64,000 bases of DNA, from assembly GCF_008704795.1 (NCBI RefSeq), contig NZ_CP023690.1, forward strand, positions 2,242,501 through 2,306,500, written 5' to 3'. The DNA is from Streptomyces spectabilis (lineage in GTDB: Bacteria; Actinomycetota; Actinomycetes; Streptomycetales; Streptomycetaceae). Both the position numbers and the translations under genes were made by a program. Under the pieces are notes generated by a model, which was given only the letters and a program-made list of their open reading frames with translations, was not told where the DNA came from and searched no databases. Below are positions 54,551 to 63,236 of the stretch, piece by piece; position 1 is the stretch's first letter; every line of letters begins with the position of its first letter.

Positions 54551-54826
54551 GTTGCGCTTCCCCTGGTCCATCAGGCATGCGAAGTAGTCCGCGAAGAGAC
54601 GCTTGTTCTTCAGGATCTGCTCGACATCGACGTTGTCGAAGCGGGCGATGTGTGCGCCCCGGGCGGAGTCGACGGGCGGCTCCAGGACATCCGACGGGCC
54701 CGCGGGCTGCACCTCGGCGTGCTCCAGGCGTGTGCCTGCCCGCGGTCCGGGCCTCTTGGTCACCAGGTGCGGGGGCTGGCTGGAATGTGGCTGCCGTTGG
54801 GTGGGGGTGGCGGATGACACTTGGTC
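54551..54826. other. Intergenic stretch with a possible gene remnant on the minus strand
   Basis: Minus strand reads ARFDNVDVEQILKNKRLFAD then YFACLMDQGKRN without a stop, with a composition more protein-like than random frames here, but it runs into the HNH gene on the opposite strand and has no plausible start context. May be the tail of a lost gene. No RNA or terminator seen. Confidence 0.35.
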
Positions 54827-56389
54827 ATGCCGAACGGAGCCCAGTCAGTCATCAGCGGTCTTGTCGAGGCCGGAGTCCAGGTGTGCTTCGCCAATCCCGG
54901 TACGTCCGAGCTGCACCTCGTGACCGCGCTCGACGACGCGCCACGGATGCGGCCGGTCCTGTGCCTCTTCGAAGGCGTCGCGACGGGTGCCGCTGACGGG
55001 TACGGGCGGATGACCGGCCGCCCCGCGAGCACACTGCTGCATCTCGGCCCCGGCCTCGCGGGCGGGCTGCCGAACCTGCACAACGCGCGGCGGGCCGGCA
55101 CGCCCGTCGTGAACGTCGTCGGTGACCACGCGCTGCGGCACAAACGGCTCGACGCGCCCCTGGAGTCGGACATCACCGCGCTCGCCCGCACGGTGTCCGC
55201 GTGGACGCGGCGCGCGTACGACGCCGCGGACCTCGCGGACGACGTCGCCGACGCCGTCGCGGCCGCGGCCGGGCCGCCGGGGGCCGTCGCCACGCTCGTC
55301 GTACCCGCCGACGTGGCCTGGGCGGACGTGGAGAAGCACGCCGGGGCCCGGCGCCGGGCCGCCGTCCCGCACGGGTTCGTGTCCGAGCGGGCGCTCGAAG
55401 AGGCCGCCGCGGTGCTGCGGTCCGGGGAGCCCGCCGCGCTGCTGCTCGGCGGCGCCGCCACGCACGGGGCCGGGCTCAGGGCTGCCGCGCAGGTCGCCGG
55501 GGCGACGGGGGCGCGGCTGCTGTGCGAGACCTTTCCCGCGCGCCTTGAGCGGGGGGCCGGGCTGCCGCCCGTCGAGCGCCTCGGCTACCGCACGGCCGAC
55601 GCCGCGGGGCAGCTCGCCGGCGTACGCCATCTCGTGCTCGCCGGGGCGTCGGTGCCGGTGCCGTTCTTCGCGTACCCGGGGCAGAGCGGGGTCGTCGTGC
55701 CCGACGGGTGCGAGGTCCGCGACCTCGGCGGTGCGGGGCAGGACGTGGGGGTGGCCCTGCGGGAGCTGGCCGCCGCCGTGGGCGGCGGCACGGCCGCCGC
55801 GGTGGCGCGGGAACCGGGGCGGCCCCGGGTGCCCGGCGGGGACCTCACCGCGGAGACCGCGGCCGCCGTGGTGGGGGCGCTGCTGCCCCAAGGGGCCGTC
55901 GTCGTGGACGAGTCCAACACCTCCGGGCTCTGGCTGCCCGACGCCACGGCCGGGGCGCCGCCGCACGACTGGCTGACCCTGACCGGCGGGGCGCTCGGGC
56001 AGGGCCTTCCGCTCGCCGTGGGCGCGGCCGTGGCCCGGCCCGAGCGGCCCGTCGTCGCGCTCGTCGCCGACGGGGCCGCGATGTACACGCTGCCCGCGCT
56101 GTGGACGCAGGCGCGGGAGGGGCTCGACGTCACGACCGTCGTCTTCAGCAACCGCGCGTACGCGATCCTGGGGCTCGAACAGGCGATGATGGGCGCCTCC
56201 GTGGGGGCCGCGGGGCGGGAGCTGTTCGATCTCGGGCGGCCCGAGCTCGACTTCGTCGCGCTGGCGCGCGGGATGGGGGTTCCCGCGGGACGGGCCACGA
56301 CCGTGGAGGGGTTCGCCTCGCTGCTGGAGCGGGGCTTGGCGGAGCCGGGCCCGTTCCTGGTGGAGTGCGTGGTGCCCCCCATCGCATGA
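54827..56389 (+). CDS. TPP-dependent decarboxylase/carboligase (acetolactate synthase-like)
   Basis: 520 residues in the three-domain TPP enzyme layout. The cofactor-activating Glu is E49 in CLFEGVATGAADGYGRM, and the diphosphate-binding site is ALVADGAAMYTL followed by SNRAYAILGLE (a G-D-G variant reading A-D-G). Resembles acetolactate synthase-large-subunit-like proteins of unknown substrate rather than IlvB. ATG at 54827; a TTG six bases upstream could also serve. Converges on the fusion dioxygenase gene with only 18 bp between stops. Confidence 0.85.
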   Translation: MPNGAQSVISGLVEAGVQVCFANPGTSELHLVTALDDAPRMRPVLCLFEGVATGAADGYGRMTGRPASTLLHLGPGLAGGLPNLHNARRAGTPVVNVVGDHALRHKRLDAPLESDITALARTVSAWTRRAYDAADLADDVADAVAAAAGPPGAVATLVVPADVAWADVEKHAGARRRAAVPHGFVSERALEEAAAVLRSGEPAALLLGGAATHGAGLRAAAQVAGATGARLLCETFPARLERGAGLPPVERLGYRTADAAGQLAGVRHLVLAGASVPVPFFAYPGQSGVVVPDGCEVRDLGGAGQDVGVALRELAAAVGGGTAAAVAREPGRPRVPGGDLTAETAAAVVGALLPQGAVVVDESNTSGLWLPDATAGAPPHDWLTLTGGALGQGLPLAVGAAVARPERPVVALVADGAAMYTLPALWTQAREGLDVTTVVFSNRAYAILGLEQAMMGASVGAAGRELFDLGRPELDFVALARGMGVPAGRATTVEGFASLLERGLAEPGPFLVECVVPPIA

Positions 56390-56407
56390 CGCCGGGCCGC
56401 CGCCCCC

Positions 56408-59266
56408 TCAGCGCGTGGGGTGGGGCGGCACCTGGCGCCACGGGGCGAAGGCGGTGGCCGTCCGGGGCAGGAGTGCGGCGAGGTCGGGGCAGTGGCGCAG
56501 GATGACGGACTTCATGCCGCCCTTCTGGACCCAGTCGATGCCCAGCGGGGTGTAGATCTCGGGGCGGAAGTCGACGGTCAGGAAGCGGTCGCTCTGCAGG
56601 CGCCTGGTGGCCATGAGGATGAAGACGCGGAACGCCGTGTCGCTGAAGCCGAATCCGGTGGGCGGGTTCTCCGCGAACAGGCCGATCATGGTGTCGACCT
56701 CGTCGACGGACGCGTAGACGTCCTTGAGCCGGGCCAGCGTCTCCGGGTCCTCGGTCAGGTCCTCGAAGCGGCGGACGCGCGGCTTGTGCAGGCCCGCGAG
56801 GAAGTCGTTGTAACGGGGCACGCCCCGGCGCCGCGTACGGACGAGGTCGACGACGGACAGGTCGATGACCTCGCCCTCGCGCTCGAAGGCCTGGAGGGCG
56901 CGGGGGAAGTTGTGGAGCGTGATGGCGCCGGGGTGGGCGATGCCGAAGGAGTAGAGGGTGTTGGCGAGGCCGGTCTTGCGGACGGCGCCCTCGGCGGCGG
57001 CGCCGTTGATGTCGAGGAACCCGACGGTTTCGAGGCGCTGCCCGAAGTGGTGCTCGCGCAGCTCGAAGTCGTCGGGGATCAGCGGGTGCATGCGGTAGAC
57101 GGTGACGAAGTCCTCGGTGAGGGAGTACGGCGCGCCGTGGTGGTCGGGCAGCGTGCCGGGGATGCCGGTGAGCGCGTGGGCGTCGAAGAGCCACAGGCCC
57201 AGCTTGGTGAGCCAGCTGTCCGGCGGGCCGTCCCAGTTGGTGTGCAGGCCGATGTCGAGGGCCTCGGTGGCGAGGATCGCGGGGGTCCACTCCACGGTGT
57301 GGATCTTGGCGATGAGCGCGGAGACGACGAGCCTGGCCGTCTGGTAGACGGACTCCTCGCCCATGGAGGGGTAGGCCCCCCGCAGGGCGTCGCAGACGGC
57401 GTTGTGCTCGCGGGCGAAGAGGGTGTGCATGACGCTCAGGCCGAGCCACCAGCTGTCGGTGAAGCCGCTGAGCGGGACGCCGCTCTGGCCGATCGGCAGA
57501 TGGCCCCGCTCCAGGCGCAGCTGGGCGCCGCCGTCGGGGATCCGCAGGGAGCGCGCGGTCGTCTCGTCCTCGCCGTACACCTCGGAGCCGTCCCACCAGT
57601 GGGACGCGGTGTTGCCGAAGAGGATCGGCGGCCGCCCTTCGGGCACGGGCAGGCCCTCGTTCTCGGCGAAGCGCATCACGGTCTCGGCGGGGCCGCTGGG
57701 CGTGTTGCGCCAGGACATCCCGCCGGGCAGCGGCACCTCGACGGTCTTGGTGCCCGCGGGGTGGCGGCGGTGGTTGACCCAGTCGTGCACCTGGAACTGG
57801 ATCCAGGCGGCGGCGAGGATGTTGAGCGAGGTCGCGGGCAGGAAGGTCTCGCGGTGCAGGAGCTGCCTGCTGACGGTGACGGGGTTCGGGGTGTCGAAGA
57901 GGTCGGGGCGGTAGACGGGGGCGAGGTTGCGCCCGAAGGCCGCGCCGACGGAGCCCATGGCGGGCGCGGACAGGTCGTTGTGCGTGCCGTCGTAACTGCG
58001 GGCGGCGCGCAGCCGCTCGTCGGCCGGACGCGGTACGGGCACGGGCTTGGGCGGCGCCTCGTGCGCGTCGGTGTCGATGAGGTTGAAGCGGCGCAGCGCC
58101 TTGCGCAGGAAGACCAGGTTCAGCAGGCTCGCCCGCGTGCCCAGGCGGTGCCAGGGCAGATAGCGGTTGAGGAGCCGGAAGGCGGCACCCGCGGGGGCCG
58201 AGAGGATCCGGTTGCGCAAGGGTTCCCCGGATCGGAAGCGCAGGCCGCCGCGGTGGGCGGCGCTCGCCTCGTAGGCGGCCTTGCGGGCCCGGTTGAGGTT
58301 GCCGAGCGGTCGGAAGTCGTCGGTGGTGTACCAGGGGTTGAAGGCCAGTTCCTCCACGCGGCCCGCGGCGGCGCGGGCCTCGGCGGTGTCGAGGTCCTGG
58401 CTGGGGATGGTGAGCCGGGCGACCGGCAGGGCGGGGGCGACGGCCTCGCGCCAGTCGGTGGCGCCGTCCTCGATGGGGGTGCGCGTCTCGTCCACGTACC
58501 GCTGGACGCACAGGTCGAAGGAGACGTCGGCGGACGCGAGGCGGTGTTCGAGGTCGCGGCGCAGGTGGTTGGGGTCGCGCCGGTCGGAGCGCGGTCCCGG
58601 CGCGGCGCCGCCCGCCGGGCGCAGCAGGTACCGGACGGGCCCCGCGTCGCCCCACAGGATCGCGCCGCGGCTCCAGTACGTCTCGCCGGCGAGGCTGGTG
58701 ACGGCGTGCCGGGTGGCGGCCCGTACGTTGCGCCGCATGCGGGTCGCGGTGGCCGGGCCGACGGCGAGCGGGAGCTTGACAAAGAGGCCGAAGGCGGCGC
58801 GCGGCGGGGTGCGGGCGCCCGCCATGGCCTTGGCGAAGGCGACGAACTCGCGGGCGTCCCTGGCGTGCGACACCGGCCAGTTGGTGGCGAGCAGGTCGTG
58901 GCTCTCCTCGGCGGTCACGCCGACGCGCACGGCGATGCCGCGCAGGTCGGCGGCGCCGTCGGCCTGCCGGATGCCGCTCGCGTTGGAGATCCGTACGGTC
59001 GCCGGGTACTCGGCGCCCGGCTCGGCGAAGCCGCGGCGCAGCGCGTCGGGCAGGTCGTCGTGGAAGCGCAGGCGCGCGTTCTCCACGCCGAGCGCGGCCT
59101 TGGCGTGCTGGGTGCGGGCCAGGGAACCGGCGCCCGCGGCGCGCTTGTTGACGTCCTGGACCTTCATCAGCTCGCGGGCGAGCCGCTCGAAGAGGCGTCG
59201 CTCCGCTTCCGGGCTGCCGTCCAGATAGCGCTCGTAGCTGCGCTCGTACGGTGTCGCTTGGGCCAT
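56408..59266 (-). CDS. Fusion of catalase-fold heme domain and cyclooxygenase/alpha-dioxygenase-like domain
   Basis: 952 residues. N-terminal part (about 1-360) has a catalase/allene-oxide-synthase layout: distal His H54 in TQHAKAALG, VRISNASG, LRGIAVRV, distal Asn N129 in LLATNWPVSHARDA, and an R-x3-Y heme-ligand motif R328/Y332 (RARKAAYEAS). C-terminal part (about 400-952) is an animal-peroxidase-family domain: FQVHDWVNH (H494/H499), then DFVTVYRMHPLIPD with Y724 and H727 spaced like Tyr385-x2-His388 of cyclooxygenase, and NTLYSFGIAHPGAI. The parts suggest a one-chain oxylipin maker: dioxygenase forms a fatty acid hydroperoxide, catalase-fold domain converts it. Substrate inferred only. ATG 59266, GGGAAG upstream. 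Confidence 0.82.
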   Translation of the reverse strand: MAQATPYERSYERYLDGSPEAERRLFERLARELMKVQDVNKRAAGAGSLARTQHAKAALGVENARLRFHDDLPDALRRGFAEPGAEYPATVRISNASGIRQADGAADLRGIAVRVGVTAEESHDLLATNWPVSHARDAREFVAFAKAMAGARTPPRAAFGLFVKLPLAVGPATATRMRRNVRAATRHAVTSLAGETYWSRGAILWGDAGPVRYLLRPAGGAAPGPRSDRRDPNHLRRDLEHRLASADVSFDLCVQRYVDETRTPIEDGATDWREAVAPALPVARLTIPSQDLDTAEARAAAGRVEELAFNPWYTTDDFRPLGNLNRARKAAYEASAAHRGGLRFRSGEPLRNRILSAPAGAAFRLLNRYLPWHRLGTRASLLNLVFLRKALRRFNLIDTDAHEAPPKPVPVPRPADERLRAARSYDGTHNDLSAPAMGSVGAAFGRNLAPVYRPDLFDTPNPVTVSRQLLHRETFLPATSLNILAAAWIQFQVHDWVNHRRHPAGTKTVEVPLPGGMSWRNTPSGPAETVMRFAENEGLPVPEGRPPILFGNTASHWWDGSEVYGEDETTARSLRIPDGGAQLRLERGHLPIGQSGVPLSGFTDSWWLGLSVMHTLFAREHNAVCDALRGAYPSMGEESVYQTARLVVSALIAKIHTVEWTPAILATEALDIGLHTNWDGPPDSWLTKLGLWLFDAHALTGIPGTLPDHHGAPYSLTEDFVTVYRMHPLIPDDFELREHHFGQRLETVGFLDINGAAAEGAVRKTGLANTLYSFGIAHPGAITLHNFPRALQAFEREGEVIDLSVVDLVRTRRRGVPRYNDFLAGLHKPRVRRFEDLTEDPETLARLKDVYASVDEVDTMIGLFAENPPTGFGFSDTAFRVFILMATRRLQSDRFLTVDFRPEIYTPLGIDWVQKGGMKSVILRHCPDLAALLPRTATAFAPWRQVPPHPTR

Positions 59267-59541
59267 CGGGCGCTTCCCTTCGCACGAGGTCGCGTTCACG
59301 GCGGGAGGCGTCGACGCTACTGGCGGCGCCGGACGGCCGCAGCGCGCGATCCCGCCATGTGCGCGGGCCGTGGCCGGGCTCGAACTGGCGGGCGGGCGGC
59401 GCCGTTCGGGCCCGTCAGCGGCTTGTGGCGGCGGCGCCGTCGGGGCGGTGCGCGTCCCTCGCGGGCCTTGGTTCCCACGCACCCCACCGCGCCGGGCGCG
59501 GCGGTGGCCGGGTCGCGACGCGGCGCGGTCGCGGGGGCGGG
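59267..59541. other. Intergenic region upstream of the fusion enzyme
   Basis: Very GC-rich (runs such as GGCGGGCGGCGCC) with no convincing ORF, RNA or perfect hairpin. Holds the minus-strand promoter of the fusion gene by position. Confidence 0.4.
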
Positions 59542-59961
59542 TCAGTCGATGAAGTCGCCGTCCACGTAGACCCAGGCGCCGTCGACCCGCTCGAACCGGC
59601 TGCGCTCGTGCAGGGCGCCCGGCCGGCCGCTGTCGCGGTACGCGGCGCGGAAGGTGACGGTGCCGGTGCTGTGGAAGGCGGTGCCGTCGGTGGTGTCCTC
59701 GATCTCCAGGCCGCTCCAGCGCAGGGCCGGGTCGAAGTCGATGCCGGGCGGGCGGGTGCGCGGGTGCCAGGTGCGCAGCAGATACGCCTCGTCGCGTACG
59801 GCGAAGGCGCTGTAGCGGGACCGCATCAGCTCCTCGGGCGTGGCGGCGGCCGCCTCGCCGCGGTGCAGTCGGCCGCAGCACTTGTCGTACGGCAGGGCGG
59901 GGCCGCAGGGGCAGGCCCGGGGGTGGGGGGCGCGTGGCGCACGGGGGGACATGCGGGTCAT
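59542..59961 (-). CDS. YchJ/UPF0225-family SEC-C motif protein
   Basis: 139 residues. N-terminal SEC-C zinc motif CPCGPALPYDKCCGRLH, then the YchJ NTF2-like domain (MRSRYSAFAVRDEAYLLRTW, ending WVYVDGDFID). Function unknown; the zinc motif resembles the SecB-binding tail of SecA. Start at 59961 (MTRMSPRAP) or 59952 (MSPRAP); neither has a clear binding site. It precedes the fusion gene on the same strand by 275 bp, so cotranscription is uncertain. Confidence 0.85.
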   Translation of the reverse strand: MTRMSPRAPRAPHPRACPCGPALPYDKCCGRLHRGEAAAATPEELMRSRYSAFAVRDEAYLLRTWHPRTRPPGIDFDPALRWSGLEIEDTTDGTAFHSTGTVTFRAAYRDSGRPGALHERSRFERVDGAWVYVDGDFID

Positions 59962-60244
59962 TCTGCCGGGCGGGGTGGTGGCCGGGGGCGGGTGGGGCGG
60001 GGGCTCCGAGCGCGGGTCGGGTGAGGCCGGGGCCCCAGGGCGGGCCGGGAGGGCCGGGGCCGCGCCGGGCGCGGTGGACGCGGCCCCGGCCGGGGCCGGT
60101 GGGGCGGCGGCGTCGGGTCCGGTGGATGCCATGGAGCGGCGGCTCCGAGCACGGGCCGGGCGAGGCCGAAGCTCCGTGCGGTCAGGGCCGTCAGGGGGCC
60201 GGGGCGCCAGGGCTGTTAGGGGGCCAGGCTCACCAGGGCGCCAG
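59962..60244. other. Low-complexity GC-rich spacer
   Basis: Between two minus-strand genes. Dominated by GGGCGGG/GGCCGGG runs and degenerate CAGGGCGCCAGG units that grade into the minisatellite at 60245. Long open frames here are by-products of GC content. Confidence 0.5.
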
Positions 60245-60346
60245 GCCCGCGAGGGCGGCACGCCCGCCAGGGCGACACGCCCGCCAGGGCGACACGCCCG
60301 CCAGGGCGACACGCCCGCCAGGGCGACACGCCCCTCAGGGCGCCAG
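60245..60346. repeat. 17-bp minisatellite, six units
   Basis: Unit GCCCGCCAGGGCGACAC occurs four times exactly (60262-60329) with a degenerate unit at each end. Each unit can fold on itself through CGCCC/GGGCG. The array runs into the 3' end of the gntR-like gene (stop at 60335), so it could act on transcript ends or be slippage-prone. Confidence 0.85.
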
Positions 60347-61036
60347 GATGTCCAGTTCCTGGAGGGCGCCCTCGGCGATTTCGCGGGTCAGGGCCTCGGC
60401 CCGGACCGCGTCGCCCTCCCGCACCGCCTCGGCGAGGCGTACGTGCAGCGTCACGGCCGCCGGGTCGGGGTCCTCGAACATCACGTCGTGCTGCGTACGG
60501 CCGGTCAGGATCTCGGCGACGACGTCGCCGAGGCGGGCGAACATCTCGTTGCCCGAGGCGTTCAGGACGGTGCGGTGGAAGGCGATGTCGTGCACCAGGT
60601 ACGCCTCCAGCTGCTGGCCGCGCGAGGTGGCGACCATGCCGAGCGCGTACTCGGTCAGGGTCGCGCACTGCTCGGCCGTGGCGTGGCGCGCGGCGAGGCC
60701 CGCGGCGACCGGCTCGACGGCCGAGCGCAGGACGGTCAGGGAGCGCAGCTGGCGCGGGCGGTCGGCGCCGGCCAGGCGCCAGCGGATGACCTGCGGGTCG
60801 TAGACGTTCCACTCCTCGGCGGGCAGGACGGTCACGCCGACCCGGCGCCGGGAGGCGACCAGGTGCATGGACTCCAGGACCCGCACCGCCTCGCGCATCA
60901 CGGAGCGGGACACCTCGAAGCGCTGTGCCAGTTCGTCCGTGCGCAGGACACTGCCGGGCGGGTACTCGCCCCCGGTGATGCTGGGCCCGAGGCTGTCCAG
61001 TACGCGGGCGTGCAGCCCCGGGGCCTGTGCGGTCAT
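60335..61036 (-). CDS. gntR: GntR/FadR-family regulator of gluconate genes
   Basis: 233 residues from ATG 61036 (MTAQAPGLHARVLDSLG). Winged helix around LRTDELAQRFEVSRSVMREA and FCD effector domain with DIAFHRTVLNASGNEMF. Divergent from gntK-gntP and matching the S. coelicolor gene order, so probably the gluconate repressor. A GTG at 61090 would add 18 residues but would place a candidate operator inside the gene. No good binding site precedes 61036, so a leaderless transcript is possible. Confidence 0.87.
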   Translation of the reverse strand: MTAQAPGLHARVLDSLGPSITGGEYPPGSVLRTDELAQRFEVSRSVMREAVRVLESMHLVASRRRVGVTVLPAEEWNVYDPQVIRWRLAGADRPRQLRSLTVLRSAVEPVAAGLAARHATAEQCATLTEYALGMVATSRGQQLEAYLVHDIAFHRTVLNASGNEMFARLGDVVAEILTGRTQHDVMFEDPDPAAVTLHVRLAEAVREGDAVRAEALTREIAEGALQELDILAP

Positions 61037-61070
61037 GGGGTCAGCGTACGAGGAGAGCACCACGGCTAAA

Positions 61071-61081
61071 AAGTCAGACTT
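61071..61081. promoter_or_regulatory. Candidate GntR operator 1
   Basis: AAGTCAGACTT, a perfect odd palindrome that contains the FadR-type GTNNNAC core. Lies between gntR and gntK. Confidence 0.55.
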
Positions 61082-61102
61082 TTCTGTCACAGGCTCTTGA
61101 AT

Positions 61103-61113
61103 TTGTCTGACCT
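61103..61113. promoter_or_regulatory. Candidate GntR operator 2
   Basis: TTGTCTGACCT fits 10 of 11 positions of the FadR-family pattern TNGTNNNACNA and shares TCTGAC with operator 1 in the reverse sense. About 22 bp separate the two. Confidence 0.5.
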
Positions 61114-61245
61114 AATGAGTTTCAGTGGCGTGAACGGAACGGGTCAGTGTCTGAAATCCCCGGCACCCACGTCACCCCGGCCTCCCCGCCCGGGGACCGG
61201 GCGGCGGGCCCGACCGATGTCGATGAAGACAGCGAGGCAGCAGCG

Positions 61246-61749
61246 ATGAGCACCCCCCACGTCGTCGTAGTGATGGGCGTCGCAGGAACGGGCAAGACCA
61301 CGGTCGGCCCCCTGCTCGCCGCCCGGCTCGGCGTTCCCTACGCCGAGGGCGACGACTTCCACCCGCGGGCGAACATCGCCAAGATGTCGTCCGGGACCCC
61401 CCTGACCGACGACGACCGATGGCCCTGGCTCGACGCGATCGGCGCCTGGGCGCACGGCCGTGCCGGGCACGGCGGCGTCGTCAGCTGCTCCGCCCTCAAG
61501 CGCGGCTACCGCGACCGGCTGCGGTCCGCCGCGCCCGGCCTCGTCTTCGTCCATCTGACCGGCGACCGGGCCCTCATCGAGGACCGGATGAGCCACCGCG
61601 AGGGCCACTTCATGCCGACCGCGCTCCTCGACTCCCAGTTCGCGACCCTTCAGCCGCTCGGCGCGGACGAGGCGGGCGTGGCCGTGGACGTCGCGGGCAC
61701 GCCGGAGGACATCGCGGACCGGGCGGCGAAGGCCCTGGCCGCCCGGTAG
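61246..61749 (+). CDS. gntK: Gluconokinase
   Basis: 167-residue P-loop kinase that phosphorylates gluconate to 6-phosphogluconate for the pentose phosphate pathway. P-loop GVAGTGKTTVG, then EGDDFHPRANIAKM and SCSALKRGYRDRLR are all family signatures. ATG at 61246 was chosen over an upstream in-frame start at 61147 because the extra 33 residues are not conserved-looking and AGCGAGG precedes the ATG. Adjacent to gntP. Confidence 0.95.
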   Translation: MSTPHVVVVMGVAGTGKTTVGPLLAARLGVPYAEGDDFHPRANIAKMSSGTPLTDDDRWPWLDAIGAWAHGRAGHGGVVSCSALKRGYRDRLRSAAPGLVFVHLTGDRALIEDRMSHREGHFMPTALLDSQFATLQPLGADEAGVAVDVAGTPEDIADRAAKALAAR

Positions 61750-61829
61750 CGCCCCTCCCGCTCCCCCACCCCTTCTCTCGTACGTACGTCCTCACGCCGG
61801 CGTACGCCTCAATCGCACAAGGAACCACC

Positions 61830-63236
61830 GTGACCAGTCTCAGCGTCGAGATGCTGGCAGCGGACCCCGTCGAACCGATCACTTCGGCGGGCCATGCCCA
61901 GCTCGGCATCGCCGTCCTCGCGGGCATCGCCGTCATCGTCCTGCTCATCACGAAGTTCAAGGTCCACGCCTTCCTGGCGCTGACCATCGGCTCGCTGTCC
62001 CTCGGCGCCTTCGCCGGGGCCCCGCTCGACAAGGCCATCAGCAGCTTCACCACCGGGCTCGGCTCCACCGTGGCGGGCGTGGGCGTGCTCATCGCGCTCG
62101 GCGCGATCCTCGGCAAGCTGCTCGCGGACTCCGGCGGCGCCGACCAGATCGTCGACACGATCCTCGCCAAGGCCGGGGGTTCCGGCGGCCGGGCCATGCC
62201 GTGGGCCATGGTCCTCATCGCCTCGGTGATCGGGCTTCCGCTCTTCTTCGAGGTCGGCATCGTCCTGCTGATCCCGGTCGTCCTGATGGTCGCCAAGCGC
62301 GGCAACTACTCCCTGATGCGCATCGGCATTCCCGCGCTCGCCGGGCTCTCCGTGATGCACGGGCTCATTCCGCCGCACCCCGAGCCCCTGGTCGCGATCG
62401 ACGCGGTCAAGGCCAACCTGGGCGTCACGCTCGCGCTCGGCGTCCTCGTGGCGATCCCGACCGTGATCGTGGCCGGGCCGCTGTTCTCGAAGGTCGCCGC
62501 GCGGTGGGTGGACGTCGCGCCGCCCGAGAAGATGATCCCGCAGCGGGCCACCGACGAGTTGGAGAAGCGGCCGGGCTTCGGGGCGACCGTCGCCACGGTG
62601 CTGCTGCCCGTCGTCCTCATGCTCGCCAAGGCGCTGGTCGACATCGTCGTGGACGACCCCGACGCGACCGTGCAGCGCGTCTTCGATGTCATCGGTTCGC
62701 CGCTGATCGCGCTGCTCGCGGCGGTGCTCGTGGGCATGTTCACGCTGGGGCGGGCCGCGGGCTTCACCAAGGAGCGGCTCTCCACGACCGTCGAGAAGTC
62801 CCTCGCTCCCATCGCGGGCGTGCTGATGATCGTCGGGGCCGGCGGTGGTTTCAAGACGACGCTCATCGACGTCGGGGTCGGCCAGATGATCCTCGACTTC
62901 TCCGAGGACTGGTCCATCCCGGCGCTCCTTCTCGCCTGGCTGATCGCCGTCGCGATCCGGCTGGCGACGGGCTCCGCGACCGTGGCGACGATTTCGGCGG
63001 CGGGGCTCGTGGCCCCGCTCGCGGCGGACATGTCCACCTCGCACACGGCCCTGCTCGTCCTGGCGATCGGCGCGGGCTCGCTCTTCTTCAGCCATGTGAA
63101 CGACGCCGGGTTCTGGCTGGTGAAGGAGTACTTCGGGCTCGACGTCGGCCAGACGATCAAGACGTGGTCGGTGATGGAGACGATCATCTCGGTGGTGGCG
63201 CTGGGGTTCGTGATGCTGCTGTCGCTGGTGCTGTAG
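61830..63236 (+). CDS. gntP: Gluconate:H+ symporter (GntP family)
   Basis: 468 residues with about 12-14 hydrophobic helices. Conserved GntP stretches include IALGAILGKLLADSGGADQI, GLPLFFEVGIVLLIPVV, MHGLIPPHPEPLVAID and HVNDAGFWLVKEYFGL. Imports gluconate for GntK, encoded 80 bp upstream. GTG start at 61830 preceded by AAGGAACC. Converges on the APC permease gene with 6 bp between. Confidence 0.95.
   Translation: MTSLSVEMLAADPVEPITSAGHAQLGIAVLAGIAVIVLLITKFKVHAFLALTIGSLSLGAFAGAPLDKAISSFTTGLGSTVAGVGVLIALGAILGKLLADSGGADQIVDTILAKAGGSGGRAMPWAMVLIASVIGLPLFFEVGIVLLIPVVLMVAKRGNYSLMRIGIPALAGLSVMHGLIPPHPEPLVAIDAVKANLGVTLALGVLVAIPTVIVAGPLFSKVAARWVDVAPPEKMIPQRATDELEKRPGFGATVATVLLPVVLMLAKALVDIVVDDPDATVQRVFDVIGSPLIALLAAVLVGMFTLGRAAGFTKERLSTTVEKSLAPIAGVLMIVGAGGGFKTTLIDVGVGQMILDFSEDWSIPALLLAWLIAVAIRLATGSATVATISAAGLVAPLAADMSTSHTALLVLAIGAGSLFFSHVNDAGFWLVKEYFGLDVGQTIKTWSVMETIISVVALGFVMLLSLVL

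What the first reader, a model, noticed from the sequence alone, without database searches (positions are those of the whole stretch)
56408..59266. One-chain catalase-fold plus cyclooxygenase-like dioxygenase
Seen: an N-terminal catalase-type heme layout (H54, N129, R328-x3-Y332) joined to a C-terminal animal-peroxidase/alpha-dioxygenase layout (H494/H499, Y724-x2-H727). Known: catalase-fold allene oxide synthases are fused to lipoxygenases in corals and some cyanobacteria. Inference: here the hydroperoxide maker is a COX-like domain instead, so this could be a bacterial oxylipin enzyme of unusual architecture. I cannot say how widespread it is.
Basis: partly seen in the sequence, partly recalled or inferred. 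Interest (0 to 1): 0.85.

Follow-up and report, generated by a model that had tools for sequence, protein, structure and literature searches.

The report
Catalase-fold and fatty-acid alpha-dioxygenase fusion enzyme
A Streptomyces gene encodes one protein that joins a small catalase-like haem domain to a fatty-acid alpha-dioxygenase, so a lipid-peroxide maker and a probable peroxide user sit in one chain; the design is common in bacteria but seems unstudied.

Summary
In detail: one uninterrupted 952-aa gene, on the MINUS strand (59266..56408). Residues 15-342 have a catalase fold; residues 367-947 are a full haem dioxygenase of the cyclooxygenase superfamily. One correction: the C-terminal half is not COX-like but a plant-type fatty-acid alpha-dioxygenase (E 4e-102; published alpha-DOX active-site residues kept in 43-44 of 44 fusions), so a 2-hydroperoxy fatty acid is the expected product. 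The N-terminal half is closest to the minimal catalase-related protein of M. avium paratuberculosis, then coral allene oxide synthase. The fusion is not rare: 32 of 246 genomes of the genus, and also Rhizobium, Mesorhizobium, Phyllobacterium, Roseibium, Streptosporangiaceae. Catalase-like and alpha-DOX genes also stand together in two to three other lineages, once fused in reverse order, which argues for a real partnership. Many fusions sit beside an unnamed protein family, a TPP enzyme or a patatin-like lipase; the window's genome lacks the unnamed gene. Most likely role: make 2-hydroperoxy fatty acid and process it, or control peroxide, in one chain. What the catalase-like domain does is inferred. 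Ten paper searches showed no paper on the fusion. New variant of a known kind.

The parts
56408..59266 (-). whole gene, 952 aa plus stop: catalase-like domain + alpha-dioxygenase
58241..59224 (-). catalase-related haem domain, residues 15-342
59105..59107 (-). H54, distal haem His (equivalent to H67 of coral cAOS)
   Evidence: 44 of 44 fusions, 14 of 14 standalone relatives in A2
58880..58882 (-). N129, distal Asn; variable in the family
   Evidence: N 30, S 12, G 2 of 44 fusions
58271..58285 (-). R328-x3-Y332, proximal haem Tyr and its Arg
   Evidence: 44 of 44 fusions, 14 of 14 standalone
58169..58240 (-). linker, residues 343-366, about 24 aa, partly predicted helix
   Evidence: ends of the two domain matches and model; inference
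56426..58168 (-). fatty-acid alpha-dioxygenase domain, residues 367-947, full length against the plant enzymes
   Evidence: 4hhr E 4e-102, 4kvj E 5e-101; Foldseek's four top hits are plant alpha-DOX (E about 1e-20 to 2e-19), but with TM-scores of about 0.2 to the model because the model is poor here
57785..57787 (-). H494, distal haem His (H157 of rice alpha-DOX)
   Evidence: 44 of 44 fusions; residue roles from passages of PMC8720084
57299..57301 (-). H656, carboxylate-binding His (H311 of rice)
   Evidence: 44 of 44
57095..57097 (-). Y724, catalytic radical Tyr (Y379 of rice)
   Evidence: 44 of 44
57086..57088 (-). H727, proximal haem His (H382 of rice)
   Evidence: 44 of 44
56600..56602 (-). 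R889, carboxylate-binding Arg (R559 of rice)
   Evidence: 44 of 44
54821..56389 (+). convergent neighbour, TPP-dependent enzyme (NCBIfam NF005760, named acetolactate synthase large subunit); stop codons 18 bases apart. Functional link not shown
   Evidence: a related gene lies beyond cl1 or the fusion in 5 of 69 fusion loci (L053, L057, L072, L077, L110)

Best explanation
It is a two-domain, probably two-haem fatty-acid alpha-dioxygenase. Step 1 (strong inference from residues): the C-terminal domain uses a peroxide-generated tyrosyl radical at Y724 to take a hydrogen from C-2 of a free fatty acid held by H656 and R889, and adds O2 to give a 2R-hydroperoxy fatty acid. Step 2 (weaker inference): the N-terminal catalase-related domain, joined by a linker of about 24 residues, uses its H54/Y332 haem to consume peroxide; most likely it takes the 2-hydroperoxide made by the first domain and turns it into a set product (reduced 2-hydroxy acid, 2-oxo acid, or chain-shortened aldehyde) instead of leaving it to break down by itself. 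Architecture and residue sets are shown; the first reaction is inferred from homology; the second reaction and its product are not shown.
For: Full-length match to plant alpha-DOX, E 4e-102; H157, H311, W315, T316, Y379, H382, F549, F552, R559 equivalents in 44 of 44 and F375 in 43 of 44 fusions (roles from passages of PMC8720084). Catalase fold of residues 25-344; H54, S94, R328, Y332 kept in 44 of 44, so the domain is not a relic. The partnership recurs: fusion clade; Streptomyces gene set CAT, 129-aa gene, DOX (6 genomes); DOX-CAT pair (G325) and reverse-order 970-aa fusion (G385) in one genus; DOX-CAT pair in one Pseudomonadota genome (G1024). Lipid setting: patatin-like gene near 11 of 69 fusions and in 4 of 6 Streptomyces gene sets (in the one gene-set member tested the Patatin model is below its cut-off). 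Precedents: coral AOS-LOX and HPL-LOX fusions (PMC5617202, passages) and the separate Nostoc 10S-DOX and catalase-related lyase genes (PMC13049297, passages; the original paper is not held).
Against: alpha-DOX does not need this partner: of 13 non-fusion DOX loci fetched (L009-L019, L034, L035; about 1.5 kb of flank) 2 show a catalase-like match, and of nine Pseudomonadota genomes with a clear alpha-DOX one has the pair. The catalase-like family also lives without DOX: 10 of 11 genomes with a standalone copy show no DOX match, and 9 of 11 of those copies have a TPP gene of a pyruvate-oxidase-like group nearby, which hints at plain H2O2 handling. On the tree of catalase-like domains standalone genes lie among the fusions (4 changes, at least 3 forced), so the domain has been lost, freed or exchanged. 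The cAOS Thr66 position is F/Q/L/V here and the distal Asn varies, so neither allene oxide synthase nor classical catalase chemistry can be assumed. In the Streptomyces gene-set lineage both partners have lost their distal His, which a simple peroxide relay does not predict. The DOX part of the model has low pLDDT.
Confidence: 0.55

Rival explanations
1. The catalase-like domain is a peroxide-tone controller, not a lipid enzyme: it destroys or meters H2O2 so that the alpha-DOX haem is activated but not burnt out.
For: alpha-DOX is started by H2O2 (PMC9305512, passages). Nearest solved relative is a catalase-related protein. Standalone copies have a TPP gene of a pyruvate-oxidase-like group nearby in 9 of 11 loci. 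The co-loss of both distal His in one lineage fits two domains that share one peroxide.
Against: The genome already holds three full-length catalases. Distal Asn and the residue before the distal His vary in the family. alpha-DOX is often found without such a partner.
Confidence: 0.3
2. The N-terminal domain is a structural or docking module that has kept haem ligands but has no own turnover that matters.
For: Domain fusions can serve localisation only; plant alpha-DOX is considered a monotopic membrane protein (PMC8720084, passage); partners that lost the distal His exist.
Against: H54, S94, R328, Y332 are kept in 44 of 44 fusions from Actinomycetota and Alphaproteobacteria, which a mere scaffold would not need.
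Confidence: 0.1
3. The enzyme is a COX-like or linoleate 10S-DOX-like dioxygenase with a catalase-fold lyase or allene oxide synthase.
For: Same superfamily; Nostoc precedent of 10S-DOX with a catalase-related lyase (review passages).
Against: alpha-DOX match is 346 bits over the whole domain against 47 bits for COX-2; both carboxylate-binding residues and T316 of alpha-DOX are conserved. Nostoc 10S-DOX itself was not compared.
Confidence: 0.05

Closest known systems
Plant and cyanobacterial fatty-acid alpha-dioxygenase (PIOX; 4hhr, 4kvj; CalDOX, LepDOX)
   Same: Full-length homology and the active-site set; alpha-DOX sequences in Actinobacteria were already noted in PMC8720084 (passages)
   Different: The characterised enzymes I met have no catalase-like domain. 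PMC8720084 cut an N-terminal extension (0-368) off its alignment before the tree, and its main text has no word catalase; that this extension is the present domain is my inference
Minimal catalase-related protein of M. avium paratuberculosis (3e4w, 3e4y)
   Same: Same short catalase fold, best fold and profile match
   Different: Single domain; 25% identity in the structural alignment
Coral allene oxide synthase-lipoxygenase and hydroperoxide lyase-lipoxygenase fusions (3dy5, 1u5u)
   Different: The oxygenase there is a lipoxygenase, here a haem alpha-DOX; the Thr66 position differs
Nostoc 10S-DOX with a catalase-related 10S-hydroperoxide lyase
   Same: Haem dioxygenase of the COX superfamily partnered with a catalase-related enzyme (seen only as passages of a review)
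   Different: Two genes there, one chain here; 10S oxygenation there, C-2 expected here; no sequence comparison made
Fungal linoleate diol synthases (DOX-P450 fusions)
   Same: COX-superfamily dioxygenase fused with a second haem domain that uses the hydroperoxide (passages)
   Different: The second domain is a P450, at the C end (passages)

Membership tests
fatty-acid alpha-dioxygenase | full-length sequence homology to plant enzymes | tested here: met
   E 4e-102, residues 367-947
fatty-acid alpha-dioxygenase | catalytic Tyr, proximal and distal His | tested here: met
   Y724, H727, H494; 44 of 44 fusions
fatty-acid alpha-dioxygenase | carboxylate-binding His311 and Arg559, Thr316 | tested here: met
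   H656, R889, T661; 44 of 44
fatty-acid alpha-dioxygenase | makes 2R-hydroperoxide from free fatty acid | not testable with these tools
   needs assay
cyclooxygenase proper | closest to COX by sequence over the whole domain | tested here: not met
   COX-2 47 bits, best stretch 47 residues; alpha-DOX 346 bits over about 580
minimal catalase-related proteins (3e4w type) | short catalase fold | tested here: met
minimal catalase-related proteins (3e4w type) | distal His, proximal Tyr and Arg | tested here: met
   H54, Y332, R328; 44 of 44 fusions
monofunctional catalase | whole catalase domain of PF00199 | tested here: not met
   only profile positions 61-141 of 383 align, 30.7 bits; the three true catalases of the genome score 614-629 bits
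monofunctional catalase | distal Asn | tested here: inconclusive
   present in the window protein (N129), but S or G in 14 of 44 fusions
catalase-fold allene oxide synthase | fold | tested here: met
catalase-fold allene oxide synthase | Thr next to the distal His (T66) | tested here: not met
   Q in the window; F 33, Q 6, L 3, V 2 of 44; T66 from passages of PMC5617202
Nostoc 10S-DOX plus lyase system | 10S oxygenation and lyase partner | not tested
   no Nostoc sequence of that pair was fetched

The most novel reading that the evidence does not exclude
The fusion is the core of an undescribed bacterial alpha-oxidation pathway: a patatin-like lipase frees a fatty acid, the alpha-DOX half makes the 2-hydroperoxide, the catalase-fold half turns it into a 2-oxo or 2-hydroxy acid or aldehyde, a TPP enzyme cleaves or ligates that, and the unnamed cl1 protein (about 465 aa, only a faint nitroreductase likeness) finishes a new signalling or defence lipid. 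All four genes stand together in some Rhizobium-group and some Streptomyces loci, in different gene orders; the window copy keeps only the fusion and another kind of TPP gene.
Probability: 0.3. Interest if true: 0.85.

Novelty: new variant of a known kind. Interest (0 to 1): 0.62.

Why it matters
The papers seen here describe three ways of wiring a fatty-acid oxygenase to a haem partner that uses the hydroperoxide: lipoxygenase plus catalase fold (corals), haem DOX plus P450 (fungi), and haem DOX with a separate catalase-fold gene (Nostoc). A fourth, alpha-DOX fused to a catalase fold, is common in soil actinomycetes and occurs in rhizobia, and is annotated mainly as 'peroxidase family protein', 'peroxidase' or 'catalase'. 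Because the same two partners stand together in several lineages, in both orders, the question of what a catalase fold does for an alpha-dioxygenase can be tested directly. It would also bring alpha-DOX chemistry, so far shown for plants and cyanobacteria, to Streptomyces and rhizobia.

Tried and rejected
COX-like reading of the C-terminal half: rejected. Frameshift or two genes: rejected. Degenerate N-domain: rejected, ligands kept 44 of 44. Classical catalase or allene oxide synthase: not adopted, residue and profile tests failed or were inconclusive.

Led nowhere: the structure of the cl1 family came out unusable (pLDDT 43); no PDB relative (one chance-level hit at E 0.82); Pfam gave only a weak nitroreductase likeness in 14 of 26 members, best E 0.0042 in a search at E up to 10. 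The fusion model is good only for the N-domain; the DOX half is low, from a shallow alignment, so the relative placing of the two haems could not be studied. Roles of the TPP, patatin-like and cl1 genes were not tested. No sigma-70-like promoter and no terminator-like site was found in 56200-59700. Ten paper searches: no listed title or abstract names this fusion; two searches listed only part of their finds (20 of 43, 12 of 13), few of the listed papers were opened and those only as passages, and the library lacks most subscription papers, including the Nostoc original.

Rows dropped and limits: trees used 8 of the 26 protein-id rows of A2 (all fusions) and all 18 of its locus fusions; L016 (the same gene as L120) and the truncated L026 were left out. 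The catalase-like tree carries long-branch warnings, and both trees are quick searches with SH-aLRT only. The genome search scored only two or three candidates a genome, so second copies may be missed. Neighbour counts come from a simple frame caller and from loci partly cut by contig ends; at least L069 has a TPP match that was swallowed by a longer frame, so they are lower bounds. A cluster first called one TPP family was split by BLAST linkage into an acetolactate-synthase-like group (25 genes, two of them from plasmid loci outside the 80), a pyruvate-oxidase-like group (8) and two single genes; only L066 of the second group had a family test, and L112's partial gene was counted with it by its place. 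Patatin-like genes of Streptomyces rest on about 30% BLAST identity to a Phyllobacterium protein that Pfam calls Patatin.
Full report
WHAT IS THERE. The coordinates hold one gene on the minus strand, ATG at 59266, stop at 56408-56410, 952 aa. Pfam gives An_peroxidase at 423-930 (E 4.9e-92) and Catalase at 69-148 (E 2.3e-7, above the curated cut-off). Against solved structures the C-terminal half matches plant fatty-acid alpha-dioxygenase over residues 367-947 (4hhr E 4e-102, 4kvj E 5e-101), far ahead of a cyanobacterial peroxidase (8s6c, 88 bits) and of cyclooxygenase (47 bits). The genome (9.8 Mb, one contig) shows only this one An_peroxidase gene and, besides this domain, three full catalases. 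The closest named relative is from Streptomyces (95%), so I take the organism for a Streptomyces.

C-TERMINAL HALF. Published residues of rice alpha-DOX (H157, H311, W315, T316, F375, Y379, H382, F549, F552, R559; passages of PMC8720084) map, by the alignment, to H494, H656, W660, T661, F720, Y724, H727, F879, F882, R889. In the 44 fusion proteins aligned here (A2) all are invariant except F720 (43 of 44). H311 and R559 hold the carboxylate in alpha-DOX, so oxygenation at C-2 is the natural inference. Cyclooxygenase chemistry is not.

HOW WIDESPREAD. The 120 listed of 5160 hits (the query among them) are 948-981 aa long and all carry An_peroxidase; every one with a named organism is Streptomyces. 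Of 246 genomes of the genus, the window's own included, 32 carry the fusion: 29 as one full-length block and 3 (G449, G537, G552) as pieces within one long frame; three more hold truncated or broken remains (G485, G566, G578). Of 396 Actinomycetota genomes 3 carry it, the window's own included; of 398 genomes of the phylum of G632 (a Nitrospirillum, so Pseudomonadota) none shows a full-length match. A scan of GTDB species genomes with the catalase-like family gave 207 encoding loci, of which the best 80 were kept: 69 have the DOX right behind, 68 of them in one continuous frame (L076 is broken), and 11 have a catalase-like gene without DOX in the locus. The 69 come from Streptomyces, Sinosporangium and Planobispora (47), Alphaproteobacteria such as Rhizobium, Mesorhizobium, Phyllobacterium and Roseibium (21), and one Chloroflexi assembly. 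Copies in Rhizobium and Phyllobacterium also lie on plasmids. The 14 fusions from outside the actinomycetes in A2 are 56-61% identical to the window protein.

REPEATED PARTNERSHIP. (i) The catalase-DOX fusion. (ii) Six Streptomyces-genus genomes with the gene order catalase-like, 129-aa gene, alpha-DOX (G412, G414, G470, G499, G574, G604), four of them followed by a protein of about 1000 aa with a patatin-like part. (iii) In one other genus of the same class, an alpha-DOX gene followed by a catalase-like gene (G325, L034), and in a second genome (G385, L016/L120) the two fused in reverse order in one 970-aa frame. (iv) One Pseudomonadota genome with an alpha-DOX-like gene followed by a catalase-like gene with a lipoprotein-type start (G1024, L136; the lipoprotein reading is by eye). 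Quick maximum-likelihood trees put lineages i, ii and iii in separate clades for the DOX domain (SH-aLRT 100, 99, 99; 45 rows); for the catalase-like domain ii and iii lie away from i (65 rows, with long-branch warnings). Lineage iv was not put in the trees. So I count at least three, perhaps four, separate couplings. Two results cut against a simple story. On the catalase-like tree standalone genes lie among the fusions (4 changes of state, at least 3 forced), so after or around the fusion the domain was lost, freed or exchanged. And many alpha-DOX have no such neighbour: 2 of 13 non-fusion DOX loci show one within about 1.5 kb, and 1 of 9 Pseudomonadota genomes with a clear alpha-DOX has the pair, while four others hold a catalase-like gene elsewhere.

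NEIGHBOURS. Of the 69 fusion loci, 44 have a gene of family cl1 within the fetched flanks, 38 on the same strand, 32 of these starting between -27 and +119 bases from the end of the DOX match; 22 have an acetolactate-synthase-like TPP gene whose tested members (L042, L086, L111) stay below the cut-off of every NCBIfam model listed for them (the best 25 of 51-53); 11 have a patatin-like gene. Three Pseudomonadota and two Streptomyces loci have all three; 17 of the 47 actinomycete loci have none. In the 246-genome sample cl1 gave 17 hits: 15 strong ones, all beside a fusion (11 directly downstream within about 300 bases, 4 divergent at about 2-2.5 kb); one short remnant running into a truncated fusion gene (G578); and one distant relative (G624, 27% identity) in a genome without a fusion match. 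Close cl1 genes were thus met only with the fusion in this sample, while 17 of the 32 fusion genomes lack them. The window genome is one of these: no cl1 match anywhere, and a different TPP gene, a member of NCBIfam NF005760, stands convergent 18 bases from the fusion's stop. The pathway idea therefore cannot be carried over to the window copy without care.

MECHANISM. Shown: architecture, folds, residue sets, spread, neighbour counts. Inferred from homology: peroxide-started tyrosyl radical, hydrogen abstraction at C-2, 2R-hydroperoxide. Inferred from precedent and repeated partnership: the catalase-fold haem acts on the hydroperoxide or on H2O2. I prefer the hydroperoxide because the two precedents seen here (coral enzymes; Nostoc by review passages) do that, and because of the lipid gene neighbourhood; the TPP genes of a pyruvate-oxidase-like group near 9 of 11 standalone copies keep the peroxide-control reading open.

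ODD FACT. In lineage ii the DOX has lost its distal haem His (to R or K, 6 of 6) and the catalase-like partner has lost its own (to N, 6 of 6), while proximal ligands stay. In lineages i and iii both distal His stay. In lineage iv the DOX keeps it and the partner seems to lack it (by eye). Some DOX without a catalase-like match in the fetched locus also lost it (L014, L015, L017, L018, L019). Co-loss suggests that the two sites share one peroxide chemistry, but with so few independent cases it is only a hint.

VERDICT. Real, correctly spotted, half correctly interpreted. It is a new wiring of known parts, common but, in the papers I could search, not described.

Noticed in passing
L121-L126 (G412, G499, G414, G470, G604, G574): Streptomyces-genus gene set with catalase-like gene, 129-aa gene, alpha-DOX and in 4 of 6 a patatin-like gene; both haem proteins have lost the distal His, 6 of 6.
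   Followed up: partly
L110:4467-5843, L042:8841-10235 and 24 further members of A3: cl1: a highly conserved family of about 465 aa; two members tested have no Pfam or NCBIfam hit at E 0.001; 15 of 17 genus hits lie beside the fusion.
   Followed up: partly
L016/L120 (G385), L034 (G325): Reverse-order DOX-catalase fusion of 970 aa and, in a genome of the same genus, the same order as two genes; the Arg before the proximal Tyr is Lys and the distal Asn position reads Thr in the alignment.
   Followed up: partly
L065, L066, L079, L083, L094, L096, L100, L106, L112: Standalone catalase-like genes with a TPP gene of a pyruvate-oxidase-like group nearby, 9 of 11 standalone loci (family test on L066 only; L112 counted by place).
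   Followed up: partly
L128 (G578:C1:8200941-8201755): Apparent deletion remnant: residues 1-234 of the fusion run into the last 40 residues of cl1.
   Followed up: no
L127 (G552), also G449 and G537: Longer fusion variants (frames of about 1290-1300 aa) without a match to residues about 503-554; L127 has some 330 residues before the catalase-like part.
   Followed up: no
L061:5980-13000: Streptomyces ochraceiscleroticus: fusion followed by a second catalase-like gene (57%) and by the start of a second DOX-like frame.
   Followed up: no
L115, L116, L107, L040, L045, L046: A cytochrome c peroxidase/RoxA-like gene directly behind the fusion in six alphaproteobacterial loci (family test on L115 only).
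   Followed up: no
window 59542-63236: Upstream neighbours look ordinary: YchJ-like protein, GntR/FCD regulator, a small kinase of the gluconate type (my reading) and a GntP permease.
   Followed up: no
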